Assembly: GCA_017397885.1 (NCBI GenBank)
Contig: JAFQHQ010000009.1
Span: 1-64,000, forward strand
Direction of reading: 5' to 3'
DNA from: Clostridia bacterium
GTDB taxonomy: Bacteria; Bacillota; Clostridia; UMGS1810
DNA: 64,000 nt
The notes beneath the pieces are model-generated. The model did not search any database. It was not told the origin of the DNA and saw only the letters and a list, made by a program, of their open reading frames with translations. Shown here one piece after another: positions 27,413 through 35,873 of the stretch. Position 1 is the first letter of the stretch, and the number at the start of each line of letters is the position of its first letter. The position numbers were made by a program, and so were the translations under genes.

Positions 27413-30400
27413 TTATTCATCCGAGCCGTATGCTTTGATGCAATAGTATTTATCATAATCACCCGGTATATATGTTTCACCGTATGAATCAATGTAGGAT
27501 ACATCGTAATAATAACGACTTGCCCTGATGATATAATCATAGCCGGCATGAATGACGTTGAAAAGTGCTCGTGTATGACCCTGGGCTATAAATTCAGCGC
27601 CCTTTTCTACCGTGCTGAGGTGTCCGGTGAAGCCAAAACTGCCCTGACGCAAACCTTCTTCCTCAGAATAAGTACCGTCCCAATTCTGCGCAGGAGGATT
27701 TTCATCCGCTTCGTCTGACTTTGCAATTACCGTACCTCGATTTACAACAACATTCGGCCAGTAAAGACCGTGGGTCTCATCAGCCACTCTTCCTTGTGCA
27801 ATGAGAGTGCCGCCAATATCAATTATCAGGTCGCTGTTGCCTGAGGAGGTGCAAATACCTGCACTCATAGAAGATTCGTTTGTGTCGTAGCCGGTTCCAT
27901 ATCCGCCTATACATGTCAGGCTGCCTTCACCTGTGATAGTTACGTCTGCGCTGCCCCATACATACATTCCGAAAGCCTCATATCTGTAACCGACAGTGCG
28001 GGTATTTTCGATGTGGTTATCGCCTATCAGAACGATGTTTAACGGAGTAGTGCTGCCATTGCGAAGAACATACAAAATGAGTGAACCACTGCCATTTAAA
28101 TTCTCAGGACTCTCCGCCACAAGCTTGAAATTATTCAATGTCATTGTGAAGGTATCAGGATCAAACGTTGCTGTACCGCTGTCTCCGTGAATCACCAGAT
28201 TTGCGGATGAGAACTCTTCGTCACCGATGGAAATATTATAGTAAACGATTTCTTTTTCTTCCCACTGTGCATAGTAAGTCATATCACACGAAACCGTTCC
28301 AAAGTCGGTCACATATTCTCCTGTGTCCTCCTGCGTTGTTGTCCAACCCTTGAAGGTATATGTAAATTCATCGGTGGAATCCTTGGCGGGGTCAACAGGT
28401 TTAACGATTGTAGTTCCGTAATCTACGGTGCCGTGTGTGTAGCTGCCGCTAAGCTCGCTTCCGCCGTTTGAATTCCAGTTTACAGTGTATTGAGCTGACC
28501 TGATTTCCCACTGTGCGTAGTAGGTCACATTACCCATAACCGTATCGCCCGAATTCAGGTCGATTCCGCTACCGTCTTCGGCAGTGTTCCAACCGGTAAA
28601 GACATAAATTTGTCCTGTCTGAGCATCTCTTGTGGGAGTATCGGGTGCAATTATGGTTGTACCATAGTCCACAGAGCCACTTGTATAATCACCAACCGGC
28701 TCATCACCACCGTTAGTATCCCACGCAACGGTGTATTGATTAACGGTTTTAGCAAACTGAGCGTAGTATGTTACATCACCTGTTACAGTGTCTCCGCTCT
28801 TCCATTTGTCACCTGAACCGTCTGCTTTGGTATTCCAGCCATCAAAAGTATATGTATACTGTACATCCGCATCTTTTGTAGGTTCTGCTCCGTCATAGGT
28901 AATGGCTGTACCCCAAGTCAAATCGCTGTCGGTTTCCGCAGAAATGCCATCTGTCATCCAAACCACGGTATATTTGGTGAGAGTTGTGTTCCACTGTGCG
29001 TAGTAGGTCACATCACCGGTAACAGCATCTCCGCTTTTCCATGCAGAACCGCTGCCATCCTTGGCGGTGTTCCAGCCGGCAAAAATGTAATTTGTACCGT
29101 GGAATGAATCCTTGGTTGGAGCATCGGGGGCAGTTATAACGGTACCGTAGTCCACAGAACCACTTGTATAATCCCCGGTCAACTCATTACCACCGTTGAC
29201 ATCCCACGCAACTTTGTATTGATTAACAGTTTTAGCAAACTGAGCGTAGTATGTTACATCACCTGTTACAGTGTCTCCGCTCTTCCACTTGTCGCCTGAA
29301 CCGTCAGCCTTTGTATTCCAGCCATCAAAAGTATATGTATACTGTACATCCGCATCCTTTGTGGGCTGTGCGCCGTCATAGGTAATGGCTGTACCCCAAT
29401 TCAAATTGCTGTCGGTTTCCGCAGAAATGCCATCTGTCATCCAGACCACAGTATATTTGGTGAGAGTTGTGTTCCACTGTGCATAGTAGGTCACATCACC
29501 TGTAACAGTAACACCGTTTTCCCAAGCTGTGCCACTGCCGTCTTTGGCGGTATTCCAGCCGGCAAAAATGTAATTTGTACCCTGGAATGAATCTTTGGTT
29601 GGAGCTTCGGGGGCAGTTATAACGGTGCCGTAGTCCACAGAACCGTTGGTGTAGCCACTACCGGTCAGTGTATTGCCACCGTTGGTATCCCATGCCACCT
29701 TATGCTGTGTTACTGTCCATTTAGCGTACAGGGTGGTTTCACCGAAAACAGTGTCGGTGTTAAAGTTCCATACCTCAGTACAAAGCTTATCTTTATACCA
29801 TCCGCCAAAGGTGCAACCAATCTTGGTGGGTGCTGTGGGCTGTTCCACTCTTTCACCGGTTTTAACTATTGCGGATTCCACTGCACTTCCGCCCCGACTA
29901 TCAAAAATAATCGTATTGTCATTGCCAATCCAGTTTGCGGTGTAGGTTGCAGTTGCGGTCGCTTCCTCGGGAAGTGCACTGCTCCAGCCATTGAAGGTAT
30001 AGCCCTCACGAGCCAATATCGGTGCGGTAACAGATTCGCCGTATAGATAATTTTGAGTAATTGTCTCGTCGCTTCCATCATTTTTTACGAAGGTCAGAGT
30101 ATAGTTTTCTCGGTCGTAGTAAACCTTGACCACAGTTGAACCATCGGCTGAGATGACCTTTTGTTCAATCTCCTCGGCAACGAAGCCTGCATAAACATCA
30201 AGACCCTGTTCATTGGTGGCAGATTCGGTTTTGCCGGTTTTTGTTTCGGTGGTATACAGCTTGTAGGTACCATTCAATTCCTGCAGATAGTGCTCTACTG
30301 TATAGTTGGCTTCACCGGGCACCCACTTGGAGTACAAGGTCATGCCCTTTGTGCCTTCAGGGAAAGTGGGCATTTTGGTTGTGCTTCCGGAATAAAGCGT

Positions 30401-33400
30401 CCGATAACCGGCGTCAGTGTACCAACCTTCAAATTCATATCCTTGTTTAGTGGGGTTAGAAGGCCATGTAAGAGGTGCATCGCTACCTCCCGAGAGCTGT
30501 TCCACAGCACTACCACCCATGGTGTCAAAGCTGATGTATCGCATACCTTCGGGGTCGCTCCAGTTCAGATGAATGACCTTCTGAATAGGTCTGGAAGTGA
30601 AGGATAATGCAGAGTTCTTCCATGTGATTGCCATGTCCGTTTCCAGTTCCAACGCTCCATCAGTTGGTGTTACCGTAACAGTGTTGTTTGTCGGATTATA
30701 GGTAAATGCAGGATTGGAGAAAGAAATGATAAAATTATTTTCTCCTGAATCATCCTTAGAAACATTGCCAATCGTGCCGTTCTTCAAATCCATATATTTC
30801 ATGTCATAGGTACTGCCCGGCAAAGCAATGGTCTTGGTGCTTACCAACGTATAATTGGTGTCGTTGGTATTTTTGAAGGTATAGATATTTTTCTGCTCAC
30901 CCGCAGACCACAGTGGCCACTCTTTAGAGTACAAGGTGGGATTCCACGTCAGCTTACTGCTACTGAATGCCTGAGCTACAAACTTAATCTCCAGATAGAT
31001 ACCAATGTCAACAATCATAGCCCCGGCGGAAGTGCTCTTTTTGCCGCTATTTTGAGCCCATTCCAGATGATAGAAGAAATATCCCCACAGTCTGGTATAA
31101 GCACCAACCTCTGCAGTAATACCAATTTTATCAAGTTTCAGCGAAATCAGTCCCACATACATTTCCAGACGCAAACCGGCACGGATGCCGAGAGTGCCGA
31201 CTACATAAAAATCAAAATTGTAGTGAGGTTCGATGATGTCGACGACTTGATTTGTAGCACTTTTTGCCTTTACCCGAACAGAGAAGTTGTACTGTTTTTG
31301 CATGGTATAGTTAAAATCCATACCCAGAGATACACAAAGATTTGCCGCCACCACAAAGCTGCCCTTCACCTGCCAGCAGAAAATATGCAAGAAGGCATTG
31401 CCGTTGGTTTCAAACAGTTTCACGTCAATGATGTCAAACCAGGTGTCGTTATTCTTTGACATCACATCCTGATATATCTCGGACAGTGAAGTCATGGTTT
31501 CATCATTGGAATCTACCGTACCATTCTGGTATGCCTCCATCTGCTTCATTATGACTTCCAGCTTTTCGGACAGGGCTTTGTTGCCTCCGTCAGCGGAATC
31601 GATATCTGCTTTGAAGTTGATGCCTGTGTAGTTACCAACCTCAAAAGAGGCATTCAAAGAATAATCATATTTCAAAAATCCAAGCTTATGACGTTTGGTG
31701 CTGATATTCTGTTTAAGGATAACTTCTTCTTCAAATTCAGCGGTGACACTGATATAAATGTTATCACCATCTTCGCTGGTGACAGTAACAGTGAATGGAA
31801 TCTTGACCGACACATCAAAGCCTTTTCCTTTCAAATGCTCCAGCGTATTGTTTGACGCAACATTGACTCTGATGTTATTCTTATCAAATTGCACCTTAAC
31901 TTTGTTTCCGTTGCCTGCACGAGTGACACTGTTTAAGCCGTATTGCTCAGGTGAGGCATGCAGGGTATTCATGCTGTACTCAACCCGTCCCATATCCGGA
32001 ATTTCTTCAAGATTGTCACTCTCCAACATCACGGAAGCAAGATACAGGGCGGCTTCTTCCGTATAGCCACTGTTTTGCACATCCTCCTTGATATCATTCT
32101 CAATCTGACTTTTTTCTTCATCAGTCAGTTCAATCTCTCTGTCCTGCGTGTAGTATACATCAAGGGAGTTTTCCACATCCCATTCGGTTGCATCGGTGTA
32201 GGTGATGATATAGTTATCGCCTGAAGTCACCACATTGGTAATTTCCCCATAAAAGGAGACGTCGCTTGCATTTTCATAGGCTTTACCCGGTGCAAGAAAT
32301 CCAAGGAAGTCGCCCACATCCAAGCTGTCAGCTTCCACAGAGTTCATCGCCACAGCAACATTATCTGCTGAAATGGTTATTTGCTTTTCAATGTTGTCAC
32401 TGTCCCAATTGCTCTGAATCGGCAGCACATCGGAAATGAATAAGACATCTTCCAAATCTGCCATTACATAGAAATATGTATCTCCGCTTGCACTCACAAT
32501 ATTCACATAAGCAACATGACCCTCCGTAGAGGTTGCATCCGTTAAATCCACATTGCCGGATGTGATTGCCACAGTATCACCGGGGTTGAGGTTCAAATCA
32601 CCGTTATATGTAAATGTACCGCTACTCTCATTCTGTTCGGCAACACCTGAATCATCAATTTGATAGAGACCTTCAAACACATCGCTGTCCAGACCGGAAG
32701 TAGACTCAACAGGAATCTGTTTCACATTCTTGTCAAGTTCCGCATTTGCCACCGTTTCTTTGGCGGTCAGAATATTCAGATAACGGGTGCTCTCAGATTG
32801 AGCATCTTCACCGTTCAATTTGAACTGTGCCCCATTATCCGTCAGTTCCACCTGATAGGTCTGACCGGGTTCCAATGTAGCTGTAACCCGAGTACCATCC
32901 ACACTGTAATCCACGTCAATATTTCCGCCTGTAATATTGATAAATTTGAATGCAGAATTGATGTTGGCTGCGCCAATCACATCAAAAGTATATGTGCCTG
33001 CCGGGACTTCGGTTCGGGTAACATAGTTTGGTGTCTCCAAAGAGTTCACGTCGTCACCTGTGGCAACATTGGCATAAAGCGTCATGTTGCGATCTACAGT
33101 ATCTCCCGTTTTCACACCACTGGTCATCTCTGCATCATAGTACCAACCAAGGAAAATAGCACCAATCTTAGTTGGAGTGGGCAGAGAACTAATCGGTGTA
33201 CCGGAGAGGTATGTACCCGTTTCCGGCAATGTGATATCTTCACTTTCATCTCCCAATTCAAACTTTACCTCATAGTACTTCTTAGAGGAACTGCCGCCAC
33301 CTGTCGGTCTGTGAACGATTGAAGGCTTCTTTTGTTCTTCCTGTTCTTCTTTCTGTTCCTCTCCACCGTAAGGAAGCCCTGTTTCGTGGTTAATCCTTAC

Positions 33401-34093
33401 TCTGTCGGAGAGAACGCCGGGTTCTTTATACCAAGCTTTAACAACATCATCGGTACGCTGTGCTATTGCAGCAGTCTGCGCACGGGTTGCATCATCTGCC
33501 GGATTAAAGTTGGTTCCGTCACCGTTTAACAAGCCCTCTTTCCAAAGGCTCTTAACTGCCTCCTGTGCCCAAGATGAAACTTTTTCAATATCAGCAGGAA
33601 GCGTTGAGATGTTTTCTCCGGTTGAATAGTCAATATTAAACGCTTCAAAATAGCGTACAAAGAATGTAGCCATCTGCTCACGGTTAATAAGACCGTCAGG
33701 TACGAATGCTTCGTCACTCATACCCGAAGTTACACCATGTATTGCAGCCCATGCTACATACGGTGCATAATATATATTTTCAGGAACATCCTTAAACGGA
33801 GTTTGTCCCTTGTAATCGGCAACATTAACACCTGCCATTCTTCCAAGTACGGTAACAAACATTCCTCTTGTCATCGTACCGTTTGGAGAAAATGTTGTTT
33901 CCGAGGTTCCGTTAAAGAAACCGTTGATGCGTGCATATTGAACAGCATCATAGAACCAATCGCTTTCCTTTACATCGGTAAAGGGATTAGCAAGCTCTGC
34001 AGACACTTCACCGTCAGGAGCCGCAAATACAGTGGCGGGTATAAGTGTAAGCATCATACTAAGCACCAGCAAAAGACTTACCAATCTTTTCAT
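27413..34093 (-). CDS. Giant SLH-domain surface protein with InlB/Flg_new-type repeats
   Basis: This 2226-residue secreted protein has a signal peptide (VSLLLVLSMMLTLIPATVFA). Three SLH domains (residues about 36-215, e.g. NPFTDVKESDWFYDAVQYA) should anchor it to the secondary wall polymer. A Glu/Gln/Lys linker follows (KEEQEEQKKPS), then one Flg_new-like unit (about 270-345). About 800 residues of beta-rich sequence of unknown family come next. From about 1178 to 1945 there are roughly ten InlB B-repeat/Flg_new units ending in TYYAQW or TLYAKW, with one MucBP-like unit (ANYTVEHYLQELNGTY). The C-terminal 280 residues form a possible beta-helix (ADVTITGEGSLTCIGG). Adhesion or matrix binding is the likely role. 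GAAGGA precedes the ATG. Confidence 0.9.
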   Translation of the reverse strand: MKRLVSLLLVLSMMLTLIPATVFAAPDGEVSAELANPFTDVKESDWFYDAVQYARINGFFNGTSETTFSPNGTMTRGMFVTVLGRMAGVNVADYKGQTPFKDVPENIYYAPYVAWAAIHGVTSGMSDEAFVPDGLINREQMATFFVRYFEAFNIDYSTGENISTLPADIEKVSSWAQEAVKSLWKEGLLNGDGTNFNPADDATRAQTAAIAQRTDDVVKAWYKEPGVLSDRVRINHETGLPYGGEEQKEEQEEQKKPSIVHRPTGGGSSSKKYYEVKFELGDESEDITLPETGTYLSGTPISSLPTPTKIGAIFLGWYYDAEMTSGVKTGDTVDRNMTLYANVATGDDVNSLETPNYVTRTEVPAGTYTFDVIGAANINSAFKFINITGGNIDVDYSVDGTRVTATLEPGQTYQVELTDNGAQFKLNGEDAQSESTRYLNILTAKETVANAELDKNVKQIPVESTSGLDSDVFEGLYQIDDSGVAEQNESSGTFTYNGDLNLNPGDTVAITSGNVDLTDATSTEGHVAYVNIVSASGDTYFYVMADLEDVLFISDVLPIQSNWDSDNIEKQITISADNVAVAMNSVEADSLDVGDFLGFLAPGKAYENASDVSFYGEITNVVTSGDNYIITYTDATEWDVENSLDVYYTQDREIELTDEEKSQIENDIKEDVQNSGYTEEAALYLASVMLESDNLEEIPDMGRVEYSMNTLHASPEQYGLNSVTRAGNGNKVKVQFDKNNIRVNVASNNTLEHLKGKGFDVSVKIPFTVTVTSEDGDNIYISVTAEFEEEVILKQNISTKRHKLGFLKYDYSLNASFEVGNYTGINFKADIDSADGGNKALSEKLEVIMKQMEAYQNGTVDSNDETMTSLSEIYQDVMSKNNDTWFDIIDVKLFETNGNAFLHIFCWQVKGSFVVAANLCVSLGMDFNYTMQKQYNFSVRVKAKSATNQVVDIIEPHYNFDFYVVGTLGIRAGLRLEMYVGLISLKLDKIGITAEVGAYTRLWGYFFYHLEWAQNSGKKSTSAGAMIVDIGIYLEIKFVAQAFSSSKLTWNPTLYSKEWPLWSAGEQKNIYTFKNTNDTNYTLVSTKTIALPGSTYDMKYMDLKNGTIGNVSKDDSGENNFIISFSNPAFTYNPTNNTVTVTPTDGALELETDMAITWKNSALSFTSRPIQKVIHLNWSDPEGMRYISFDTMGGSAVEQLSGGSDAPLTWPSNPTKQGYEFEGWYTDAGYRTLYSGSTTKMPTFPEGTKGMTLYSKWVPGEANYTVEHYLQELNGTYKLYTTETKTGKTESATNEQGLDVYAGFVAEEIEQKVISADGSTVVKVYYDRENYTLTFVKNDGSDETITQNYLYGESVTAPILAREGYTFNGWSSALPEEATATATYTANWIGNDNTIIFDSRGGSAVESAIVKTGERVEQPTAPTKIGCTFGGWYKDKLCTEVWNFNTDTVFGETTLYAKWTVTQHKVAWDTNGGNTLTGSGYTNGSVDYGTVITAPEAPTKDSFQGTNYIFAGWNTAKDGSGTAWENGVTVTGDVTYYAQWNTTLTKYTVVWMTDGISAETDSNLNWGTAITYDGAQPTKDADVQYTYTFDGWNTKADGSGDKWKSGDTVTGDVTYYAQFAKTVNQYKVAWDVNGGNELTGDYTSGSVDYGTVITAPDAPTKDSFHGTNYIFAGWNTAKDGSGSAWKSGDAVTGDVTYYAQWNTTLTKYTVVWMTDGISAETDSDLTWGTAITYDGAEPTKDADVQYTYTFDGWNTKADGSGDKWKSGDTVTGDVTYYAQFAKTVNQYTVAWDTNGGDEPVGDYTSGSVDYGTTIIAPDTPTRDAQTGQIYVFTGWNTAEDGSGIDLNSGDTVMGNVTYYAQWEIRSAQYTVNWNSNGGSELSGSYTHGTVDYGTTIVKPVDPAKDSTDEFTYTFKGWTTTQEDTGEYVTDFGTVSCDMTYYAQWEEKEIVYYNISIGDEEFSSANLVIHGDSGTATFDPDTFTMTLNNFKLVAESPENLNGSGSLILYVLRNGSTTPLNIVLIGDNHIENTRTVGYRYEAFGMYVWGSADVTITGEGSLTCIGGYGTGYDTNESSMSAGICTSSGNSDLIIDIGGTLIAQGRVADETHGLYWPNVVVNRGTVIAKSDEADENPPAQNWDGTYSEEEGLRQGSFGFTGHLSTVEKGAEFIAQGHTRALFNVIHAGYDYIIRASRYYYDVSYIDSYGETYIPGDYDKYYCIKAYGSDE
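28741..29706 (-). repeat. Two near-identical 483-bp (161-codon) direct repeats
   Basis: Unit 28741-29223 and unit 29224-29706 align with the same phase and offset of 483. The first 270 bases of each differ at only about 15 positions by eye. They encode paired YTVVWMTDG and VNQYxVAWDxNGG modules. Further diverged copies lie on both sides. Confidence 0.85.
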
Positions 34094-34422: not shown

Positions 34423-34451
34423 TTGACAAACACTATAACATTTGATATAAT
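34423..34451 (+). promoter_or_regulatory. Consensus sigma-A promoter of the XRE-DUF3990 cassette
   Basis: TTGACA (34423-34428) and TATAAT (34446-34451) are exact with a 17-base spacer. The leader to the ATG at 34487 is under 35 bases. Confidence 0.9.
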
Positions 34452-34472
34452 ATTAAATATAAATAATGTTAT
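34435..34472 (+). promoter_or_regulatory. Inverted repeat flanking the -10 box, candidate operator
   Basis: ATAACATT (34435-34442) and AATGTTAT (34465-34472) are exact complements whose centres lie 30 bp apart, about three helical turns, on either side of the TATAAT box. This is the layout expected for autorepression by the helix-turn-helix protein encoded just downstream. Confidence 0.6.
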
Positions 34473-34486
34473 ATCGAGGTGAAGTT

Positions 34487-35356
34487 ATGGAAATCATAAT
34501 AAAACAAATAAGAAATCATTTGAATATGAGTCAGACTGAGTTTGCTGATTGGCTTGGTGTATCCTTTGCAACGGTCAACCGTTGGGAGAATGGTCATGCT
34601 GTTCCGAATAAGCTTGCGCAAACAAAGCTTTATGAAGTTTGCAACGAAAAGACGATTCCGGTTTATGAAATGATTTTAGATAAAATAAAGCAGGCTACGG
34701 ATAATATCAGTCTGGAGAAAAACAGAATTTTACTTTATCATGGTTCCAAGTCTGGTATTGTTGGAGGCATTGAACCGAAAAGCCGTAAGCAGTGTGATTT
34801 TGGCAAGGGTTTTTATATGGGAACTGATCCGAATCAACCTCTTACTCTTATTTGTGATTATGAGGAGTCTAAATTTTATATTGTTTCCATTTATGCAGAG
34901 ACACTTAAAAGCCTTGAGGTTAATACTGATATTGACTGGGCGATGCTTGTGGCATATAACCGGGGCAAGATGGAAAAAATAAAAGATACCGATTTATATA
35001 ATAAATATCGTGATATGATGACAGACAAGGATTTAATCATCGGCAGTATTGCAAATGACAGAATGTTTTATGTTATAGATAACTTTTTCGTTGGAAATGT
35101 TACGGATGTTGCACTTGTAAACAGTCTTTCTGCTTTGCAGCTCGGCAGACAGTATGTAACCGTTTCTCAAAAGGGCTGCGACGCAGTTCGAATTGAAGAA
35201 GAAATACCTCTTTCATACCTTGAAAAACTCGTTATGAAGGAAGTTGCAGATGAAAACAGAGCAAAGGGCATTTCTATTGCAAATGACATTTGCAAAAACT
35301 ATCGCCGTGAAGGTAAATTCTTTGATGAAATCCTTGATGAAGCGAAAGGGGTATAA
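34487..35356 (+). CDS. XRE helix-turn-helix fused to a DUF3990 (ART-like) domain
   Basis: The 289-residue protein starts with an XRE helix-turn-helix (MSQTEFADWLGVSFATVNRWENG, residues about 14-36). After a short helical linker comes a DUF3990 domain: ILLYHGSKSGI near residue 85, then DFGKGFYMGTDPNQ. DUF3990 has been related to ADP-ribosyltransferase folds; the HGS and GFYxxTxxxQ blocks fit that. A DNA-binding head on a putative toxin domain suggests a self-regulated toxin-antitoxin-like gene. The start is ATG 34487, with GAGGTG five bases upstream; an ATG at 34466 lies in the inverted repeat. It is two bases from the next gene. Confidence 0.83.
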   Translation: MEIIIKQIRNHLNMSQTEFADWLGVSFATVNRWENGHAVPNKLAQTKLYEVCNEKTIPVYEMILDKIKQATDNISLEKNRILLYHGSKSGIVGGIEPKSRKQCDFGKGFYMGTDPNQPLTLICDYEESKFYIVSIYAETLKSLEVNTDIDWAMLVAYNRGKMEKIKDTDLYNKYRDMMTDKDLIIGSIANDRMFYVIDNFFVGNVTDVALVNSLSALQLGRQYVTVSQKGCDAVRIEEEIPLSYLEKLVMKEVADENRAKGISIANDICKNYRREGKFFDEILDEAKGV

Positions 35357-35358
35357 GA

Positions 35359-35781
35359 ATGATTGATGAATTGCAATTAAAGCTTTGTGATATTCAGGGC
35401 AGGTTGTTTGAGCTGTCTGCAGAAAAAGGATATGGCAGCGCAGTATTTATTAAAGCTTTTATGACATCTGAAATTGCCAAAGACTTGGATTCAAAATATA
35501 ATCGTATGCAATGGGCAGGCGAGGAATATCTGCTTGATGAAATTGTATCGGCTAATAGTGATATAGCATCATCGGATGGAGAAGTCTTTTCTGCCGATGT
35601 AATATACTGGATTGGCTATCTCTACCGTTATTGGCATTTCTATACCGGCGAGAGAAGCGTGCAAATTTATAAGCAAGCTCCGGTTGAAACAATGAAACGA
35701 AATTATATGATGTTTCATACAATGGATCCTACACTTGCTATTGAGGATTTGAAGGAAATATACGGACAAAATAAAGAATAA
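35359..35781 (+). CDS. Partner protein of the XRE-DUF3990 gene (putative antitoxin)
   Basis: The 140-residue soluble, acidic and mostly helical protein contains MQWAGEEYLLDEIV, VIYWIGYLYRYWHFYTGE and an EIAKDL helix. I recall similar proteins next to DUF3990 genes in Clostridia but cannot name a family. AAAGGGG within the preceding gene's end serves its ATG, and the two-base gap implies coupled translation at matched amounts, as in toxin-antitoxin pairs. A terminator follows. Immunity or antitoxin function is inferred from context only. Confidence 0.7.
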   Translation: MIDELQLKLCDIQGRLFELSAEKGYGSAVFIKAFMTSEIAKDLDSKYNRMQWAGEEYLLDEIVSANSDIASSDGEVFSADVIYWIGYLYRYWHFYTGERSVQIYKQAPVETMKRNYMMFHTMDPTLAIEDLKEIYGQNKE

Positions 35782-35787
35782 TATATT

Positions 35788-35819
35788 AAGTTGTCACTTT
35801 AACTAAGGGGCAACTTTTT
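35788..35819 (+). terminator. Terminator of the XRE-DUF3990 cassette
   Basis: An AAGTTGTC/GGCAACTT stem with one G-U pair is followed by TTTTTA, starting 7 bases after the stop codon. Confidence 0.6.
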
Positions 35820-35843
35820 ATTTGTAAATCTTTAAACAATAAC

Positions 35844-35873
35844 AAAAGCATCCTATATTGATAAGATGCTTTT
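35844..35873. terminator. Second stem-loop, AAAAGCATC/GATGCTTTT
   Basis: A perfect 9-bp stem (35844-35852 with 35865-35873) with a 12-base loop is followed by CTAGTTTT on the plus strand. It is probably a back-up terminator of the cassette. Confidence 0.6.

What the first reader, a model, noticed from the sequence alone, without database searches (positions are those of the whole stretch)
34423..35873. XRE-DUF3990 fusion plus 140-residue partner: a candidate self-regulated toxin-antitoxin-like system
A compact plus-strand cassette stands alone between minus-strand units. It has an exact consensus promoter and an 8-bp inverted repeat flanking the -10 box. It encodes a helix-turn-helix protein fused to a DUF3990 domain related to ADP-ribosyltransferases, then a tightly coupled small acidic protein, then two stem-loops. 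Unlike classic pairs, the DNA-binding function is fused to the putative toxin domain and the partner has no DNA-binding motif. The target and mechanism are, to my knowledge, not established.
Basis: partly seen in the sequence, partly recalled or inferred. Interest (0 to 1): 0.7.

Follow-up and report, generated by a model that had tools for sequence, protein, structure and literature searches.

The report
Self-repressing ADP-ribosyltransferase toxin-antitoxin candidate
A gut-type bacterium carries a two-gene module that looks like a poison enzyme and its antidote; unusually, the enzyme itself carries the DNA-binding switch that shuts the pair off, and comparing about 60 relatives shows which DNA letters that switch reads.

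Summary
In detail: promoter, inverted repeat, Xre-type HTH fused to DUF3990, a coupled 140-aa acidic partner and two stem-loops are all there. The pair is real and conserved. All evaluable fused homologues have the partner directly downstream, both genes are under purifying selection, and both belong to PADLOC's untested defence candidate PDC-M42. AlphaFold models are confident (pLDDT 94-95). The ART triad H85-Y110-Q222 is invariant in 93 homologues; the partner is an all-helical protein with no fold match. The strongest new result concerns regulation. The inverted repeat is conserved as TAACA-N26-TGTTA, and it changes to TATCA-N26-TGATA exactly when the recognition helix changes (28/28 versus 14/14). 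It is absent from relatives that lack an HTH. So the toxin-side HTH very probably represses its own operon. The HTH is portable: on the ART here, on the partner in a sister clade, absent elsewhere. Some copies head type I restriction-modification operons. Best explanation: an autoregulated ART toxin-antitoxin or abortive-defence module whose toxin carries the repressor domain. Toxicity, target and neutralisation are inferred, not shown. It is a new regulatory variant of a catalogued but uncharacterised kind.

The parts
34423..34451 (+). promoter: -35 TTGACA (34423-34428), 17-bp spacer, -10 TATAAT (34446-34451)
   Evidence: 12/12 consensus
34434..34442 (+). operator arm 1, TATAACATT, inside the -35/-10 spacer
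   Evidence: Arm, spacing and position conserved upstream of fused homologues and covarying with the HTH recognition helix
34465..34473 (+). operator arm 2, AATGTTATA, between -10 and the ribosome-binding site
34476..34481 (+). ribosome-binding site GAGGTG of ORF1
   Evidence: read from the sequence
34487..35356 (+). ORF1: HTH-DUF3990 fusion, 289 aa, putative ADP-ribosyltransferase toxin and repressor
   Evidence: Pfam, AlphaFold2 pLDDT 94.7, dN/dS 0.12 to nearest relative
34499..34609 (+). Xre-type helix-turn-helix domain, residues 5-41; recognition motif SFATVNRW
   Evidence: HTH_3 E 1.1e-9; PDB match to HigA2 antitoxin, prob 1.0
34730..35188 (+). DUF3990 / ART-clan domain, residues 82-234; triad H85 (34739-34741), Y110 (34814-34816), Q222 (35150-35152)
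   Evidence: PF13151 E 1.3e-27; triad invariant in 93/93, on strands 80-87, 109-112 and 221-225 of the model
35345..35351 (+). ribosome-binding site AAAGGGG of ORF2, inside the end of ORF1
   Evidence: read from the sequence
35359..35781 (+). ORF2: 140-aa acidic all-helical partner, putative antitoxin
   Evidence: PDC-M42B E 4.2e-12; AlphaFold2 pLDDT 94.3; no PDB or viral fold match; N-terminal half related to DUF3791-type partners
35788..35816 (+). intrinsic terminator-like stem-loop followed by T's, ends the operon
   Evidence: -11.6 kcal/mol, z -4.0
35844..35873 (.). second, probably bidirectional, terminator-like stem-loop

Best explanation
A two-gene, autoregulated toxin-antitoxin-type module of the PDC-M42 / DUF3990-DUF3791 kind. 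ORF1 is an ADP-ribosyltransferase (H-Y-Q clade) with its own DNA-binding domain. ORF2 is a small helical antitoxin that binds it and holds it inactive. The ART-antitoxin complex sits on two half-sites 31-32 bp apart, about three helical turns and so the same DNA face, which bracket the -10 box and shut the promoter. When the antitoxin is lost or titrated, for example after phage attack or failure of a neighbouring restriction system, the ART modifies an essential cell or phage target with ADP-ribose and stops growth. Shown by sequence comparison: the pair travels together, the triad is invariant, an operator exists and the fused HTH reads it, and the HTH is separable from the core. Inferred: toxicity, antitoxin binding, the bridged complex, the trigger and an anti-phage role. 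Unknown: the target.
For: Fused ORF1 homologues: 63 of 66 have the partner directly downstream, usually overlapping by 1-8 nt; the rest are two contig ends and one present but missed by the gap rule. Partner hits in 391 genomes of the class: 45 of 50 strong ones lie beside DUF3990, one is a true orphan, the others are contig edges or fragments. Perfect 8-bp inverted repeats upstream: 31/57 HTH-ART loci (shuffles 3%), 10/24 HTH-on-partner loci (2.4%), 2/30 loci without HTH (2%). Operator class follows the recognition helix: 28/28 scored F-x-[TS] helices have TAACA (one further tie), 14/14 others have TATCA, Fisher 2e-11. Triad invariant and placed on strands 1, 2 and 5. Purifying selection on both genes. 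PDC-M42A/B matches. HsdM within 6 kb of 5/113 pairs in 1.09 Mb, against about one per 3.3 Mb genome-wide; pairs head hsd operons in L155 and L168. DUF3990 also occurs as an Rhs toxin tip with an immunity gene downstream (PMC4524185).
Against: No toxicity, binding or phage data exist for this pair or, as far as searched, for any DUF3990-DUF3791 pair. The third catalytic residue is Q, not E; the paper on the ART clan lists Q as allowed (PMC7955679), but activity is not shown. Fold similarity of the ART domain to solved ARTs is weak by Foldseek. In standard type II modules the antitoxin, not the toxin, binds DNA. The Fisher test is not corrected for phylogeny (at least three switches). The window's own copy is not beside restriction or other defence genes.
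Confidence: 0.72

Rival explanations
1. A one-component transcription factor: the ART-like domain is a catalytically dead NAD+/ADP-ribose sensor, and the partner is a co-regulator or accessory protein. The operon senses NAD+ state rather than poisoning anything.
For: HTH fused to a nucleotide-binding type domain; the third catalytic residue is Q; clean operator.
Against: Sister and nested lineages lose the HTH altogether but keep the ART plus partner, or carry the HTH on the partner, so the core function does not need DNA binding. No regulated gene other than the pair itself was seen (the exact operator occurs once in the window). The triad is invariant. DUF3990 occurs as a secreted Rhs toxin tip (PMC4524185).
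Confidence: 0.12
2. An RM-linked backup defence: the pair is silenced by an intact restriction-modification complex and fires when RM is inhibited, as PrrC does beside EcoprrI.
For: Pairs directly upstream of hsdM (L155, nearest relative of the window pair; L168) and beside hsdR (L173); enrichment of HsdM near pairs; a partner orphan beside a C5 methyltransferase.
Against: Most pairs, including this one, have no RM gene within 6 kb. The comparison with PrrC is from general knowledge.
Confidence: 0.1
3. A post-segregational addiction or selfish element with no defence role.
For: Patchy distribution; present in few members of its own genus and family, and sites differ; spread over several phyla and two archaeal MAGs.
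Against: No match on sequenced plasmids or phages and only 7 viral contigs; frequent placement beside RM genes.
Confidence: 0.15

Closest known systems
PDC-M42 (PADLOC-DB phage defence candidate, genes PDC-M42A and PDC-M42B)
   Same: Both genes match their models and are adjacent; 89/93 and 78/84 homologues match. This is the same candidate system.
   Different: No mechanism or regulation was found described in the papers searched. The window ART is a distant match (E 6.4e-9) and carries an N-terminal HTH.
DUF3990-DUF3791 gene pairs (Pfam PF13151, PF12668)
   Same: Same ART domain; the N-terminal half of ORF2 is related to the DUF3791-like ORFs of 66-90 aa that follow short DUF3990 genes (hhalign 91%).
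   Different: Here the partner is twice as long and the ART has an HTH and a C-terminal helical extension.
RES-Xre (ParT/MbcT) toxin-antitoxin modules
   Same: ART-fold toxin plus Xre-type HTH in a two-gene autoregulated operon.
   Different: No RES match; the HTH is on the ART, not on the antitoxin; the active-site class is H-Y-Q.
DarT-DarG / DarT-NADAR
   Same: ART toxin with a neighbouring antitoxin; NADAR genes lie in the same operon as two relatives (L162, L186).
   Different: Not a DarT match; the partner is neither a macrodomain nor a NADAR, so a binding rather than an eraser antitoxin is more likely here.
HipH (YjjJ) and HipBST
   Same: Precedents for a toxin with an N-terminal HTH (HipH) and for separating repressor from antitoxin (HipBST) (PMC8262856).
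   Different: Kinases, not ARTs; HipH has no antitoxin gene.

Membership tests
PDC-M42 (PADLOC candidate) | gene A matches PDC-M42A | tested here: met
   E 6.4e-9; 89 of 93 homologues. The domain also matches the M13 and M10 candidates, so gene B decides.
PDC-M42 (PADLOC candidate) | gene B matches PDC-M42B and is adjacent | tested here: met
   E 4.2e-12; 78 of 84 homologues; 2-nt gap
PDC-M42 (PADLOC candidate) | protects against phage | not testable with these tools
   needs a plaque assay
ART superfamily, DUF3990 family | Pfam model above its curated cut-off | tested here: met
   96.8 bits against 32.2; DUF3990 is in the ART clan (PMC7955679)
ART superfamily, DUF3990 family | H-Y-[EDQ] triad on strands 1, 2 and 5 | tested here: met
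   H85, Y110, Q222 invariant in 93/93, on model strands 80-87, 109-112, 221-225
ART superfamily, DUF3990 family | fold matches solved ARTs | tested here: inconclusive
   PARP10/14 and a diphtheria-toxin homologue are among the best hits, but E is 0.005-0.5 and TM low
ART superfamily, DUF3990 family | transfers ADP-ribose from NAD+ | not testable with these tools
   needs biochemistry
type II toxin-antitoxin module | two adjacent, translationally coupled small genes | tested here: met
   2-nt gap here, mostly 1-8 nt overlaps in homologues
type II toxin-antitoxin module | autoregulation through an operator | tested here: met
   comparative only: operator tracks HTH presence and recognition helix; no binding assay
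type II toxin-antitoxin module | toxin stops growth and the protein partner neutralises it by binding | not testable with these tools
   inferred from strict co-occurrence
type II toxin-antitoxin module | antitoxin carries the DNA-binding domain (usual, not obligatory) | tested here: not met
   the HTH is on the ART; the partner has none. In the sister clade it is on the partner
RES-Xre | RES-domain toxin | tested here: not met
   no RES match in Pfam
DarTG / DarT-NADAR | macrodomain or NADAR antitoxin | tested here: not met
   partner has no such match in Pfam

The most novel reading that the evidence does not exclude
The HTH does more than repress: it delivers the ART to DNA, so that the enzyme, when freed, ADP-ribosylates DNA (or nascent transcripts) at or near sites of its operator sequence. 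That would be a sequence-directed nucleic-acid ADP-ribosyltransferase, with the operon's own promoter as first target. Neighbouring NADAR genes (erasers of guanine ADP-ribose) in two relatives, both outside the HTH-fused clade, are the only hint.
Probability: 0.05. Interest if true: 0.85.

Novelty: new variant of a known kind. Interest (0 to 1): 0.56.

Why it matters
It gives an uncharacterised defence candidate (PDC-M42) a concrete anatomy: catalytic triad, antitoxin family, operator and a two-class operator code that can be tested with a few oligonucleotides. It joins the DUF3990-DUF3791 and PDC-M42 pairs into one ART toxin-antitoxin superfamily. It also shows that the repressor domain of such modules is portable (on the toxin, on the antitoxin, or absent), with the operator arriving and leaving with it. 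That bears on the general question of how toxin-antitoxin autoregulation evolves and whether it is essential.

Tried and rejected
Plasmid and phage records: no match. Viral contigs: 7 relatives, most of them weak, so a phage-borne origin is not supported. A structural RNA antitoxin (type I or III): no Rfam match. A split or frameshifted HTH upstream of the HTH-less relatives: none found by tblastn on the coding strand close to the gene, except an HTH-like stretch near L177, which is in the HTH-on-partner group. A conserved third gene: NADAR occurs in 2 and Fic in about 3 loci only. A perfect internal duplication of ORF2 (two DUF3791 units): in register but weak, hhalign E 0.009, probability 4.5%, so not claimed. 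A clean empty site: in G001 (lysS region 93% identical) the interval holds other genes, so no exact insertion boundary was obtained. Complex prediction was not possible with the tools.

Full report
OBSERVATION. The cassette is real and as described. The promoter at 34423-34451 is 12/12. A 9-bp inverted repeat, TATAACATT (34434-34442) and AATGTTATA (34465-34473), brackets the -10 box. ORF1 (34487-35356, 289 aa) has HTH_3 at residues 5-41 and DUF3990 at 82-234, both far above cut-off. ORF2 (35359-35781, 140 aa, pI 4.7) starts 2 nt later and has no DNA-binding domain. Two terminator-like stem-loops follow (z -4.0 and -3.5). The flanking genes, a 2226-aa S-layer protein and lysS, are on the other strand.

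GENE PAIR. Loci were gathered from 80 named contigs and from 391 genomes of the class (79 have DUF3990). Of 66 HTH-DUF3990 loci, 63 have the partner directly downstream; two of the others end at the contig border and in the third the partner was found on inspection. Searching the other way, with the partner profile in 391 genomes, 45 of 50 strong hits lie beside DUF3990, and only one (G116:C110, L245) is a true orphan on an unbroken contig. dN/dS is 0.02-0.14 for both genes wherever it could be computed. The pair therefore travels and is selected as a unit.

PROTEINS. AlphaFold2 with the homologue alignments gives pLDDT 94.7 for ORF1 and 94.3 for ORF2. In ORF1, H85 lies on the first strand of the ART domain, Y110 on the second and Q222 on the strand that carries the third ART residue; all three are invariant in 93 of 93 sequences, with D104, G106, G108, F109, W151, R159, D182, F200 and G220. 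This is the H-Y-[EDQ] pattern of the ART clan, in which DUF3990 is listed (PMC7955679). Foldseek against the PDB matches the HTH to HigA2 (probability 1.0) and the ART domain weakly to PARP10, PARP14 and a diphtheria-toxin homologue. ORF2 is all-helical with no fold match in the PDB or among viral models. Its N-terminal half is related to the DUF3791-like ORFs of 66-90 aa that sit beside short DUF3990 genes (hhalign 91%, E 9e-7), and 29 of 84 partners hit DUF3791 in Pfam at E up to 0.01.

REGULATION, THE MAIN NEW RESULT. The inverted repeat is present upstream of fused homologues from several phyla at nearly fixed position (48-60 bp before the start) and spacing. Perfect 8-bp repeats with spacers of 16-30 occur in 31 of 57 HTH-ART loci (3% in dinucleotide shuffles), in 10 of 24 loci in which the HTH is on the partner (2.4%), and in 2 of 30 loci with no HTH (2%). 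The HTH-on-partner clade has arms of its own, such as ATACTTCTG/CAGAAGTAT. Within the HTH-ART group the core is TAACA-N26-TGTTA or TATCA-N26-TGATA. The first goes with recognition helices of the form F-x-[TS]-[VI] (28 of 28 scored, one further tie), the second with Y[IL]TV, V[LQV]SI, ALSV and RLAV (14 of 14), Fisher P 2e-11. Loci whose operator scored below 9 of 10 were left out of that test. It is not corrected for phylogeny, but at least three lineages switched, one of them (L080, L082, L087, L098) nested among TAACA types in the tree. The second copy in the same genome (L002) has the TATCA type, so the two modules should not cross-repress. The fused HTH is therefore very probably the domain that reads the operator. 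The half-sites are 31-32 bp apart, about three turns, too far for a simple HTH dimer, which suggests that a larger ART-partner assembly bridges them (inference).

PORTABLE HTH. A tree of 113 ART domains separates a clade with the HTH on the partner from a clade with the HTH on the ART or absent. By parsimony 12 label changes are needed in all, though many inner branches are weak and the starred branches alone force far fewer. In the HTH-less relatives no HTH gene or frameshifted remnant was found upstream; L117 keeps the linker without the HTH. The ART plus partner are therefore the functional core and the HTH is an accessory regulator. This speaks against a plain transcription factor.

CONTEXT. 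HsdM occurs within 6 kb of 5 of 113 pairs in 1.09 Mb scanned, against roughly one per 3.3 Mb in 99 genomes of the class (the denominator, about 240 Mb, is summed from rounded sizes). In L155, the nearest relative of the window pair, and in L168 the pair is directly upstream of hsdM in one operon. Two relatives outside the HTH-fused clade have a NADAR gene in the operon (L162, L186) and about three loci have a Fic gene. The window's own copy sits alone in a variable interval between lysS and an S-layer gene; in G001, 93% identical across lysS-greA, that interval holds other genes. No match was found in plasmid or phage records.

COMPARISON. Both genes match PADLOC's PDC-M42, so the module is a member of that catalogued candidate system. 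The papers searched do not mention it; PADLOC's PDC names are, from general knowledge, from the work of Payne and colleagues on defences embedded in known immune systems. Toxins with an N-terminal HTH are known among HipH kinases (PMC8262856), and DUF3990 is known as a toxin tip of an Rhs protein with an immunity gene downstream (PMC4524185). RES-Xre and DarTG resemble it in being ART toxin-antitoxin pairs, but their defining domains are absent here.

VERDICT. Regulation by the fused HTH: about 0.93. Toxin-antitoxin function: about 0.75. Anti-phage role: about 0.5. Target: unknown. New regulatory variant of a known but uncharacterised kind.

Noticed in passing
L002 (own genome, contig C150): Second HTH-DUF3990 gene in the same genome (47% identical, cut by the contig end) with a different operator type, TATCA-N26-TGATA: probably an insulated paralogue.
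   Followed up: yes
L155:803-6648, L168:2063-4951, L173:374-4482: ART-partner pairs as the first genes of type I restriction-modification operons or directly beside hsdR.
   Followed up: partly
L162:4964-7127 and L186:3287-5158: DUF3990-partner pairs in one operon with a NADAR gene (L162 also with Fic), which hints at guanine ADP-ribosylation in those branches.
   Followed up: partly
L150:5683-9305: Tandem of both architectures (HTH on partner, then HTH on ART) followed by a Fic gene.
   Followed up: no
L245:2512-2976; L246:2172-3191: L245: an orphan partner beside a C5 DNA methyltransferase. L246: an HTH-bearing partner at a contig edge beside an Mrr-like gene and a C5 DNA methyltransferase. 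Possible antitoxin decoy or anti-addiction gene in L245.
   Followed up: partly
window 34466-34468: Operator arm 2 contains an in-frame ATG upstream of the likely true start; the same holds in several homologues and may mislead gene callers.
   Followed up: partly
window 27413-34093: 2226-aa surface protein with three SLH domains and ten Listeria-Bacteroides repeats; in G001 another large repeat protein lies near lysS instead, so the interval looks variable.
   Followed up: partly
L106, L127: Fused pairs on contigs binned as archaea (a Methanomassiliicoccaceae MAG and a horse-faeces archaeon MAG): transfer or mis-binning.
   Followed up: no
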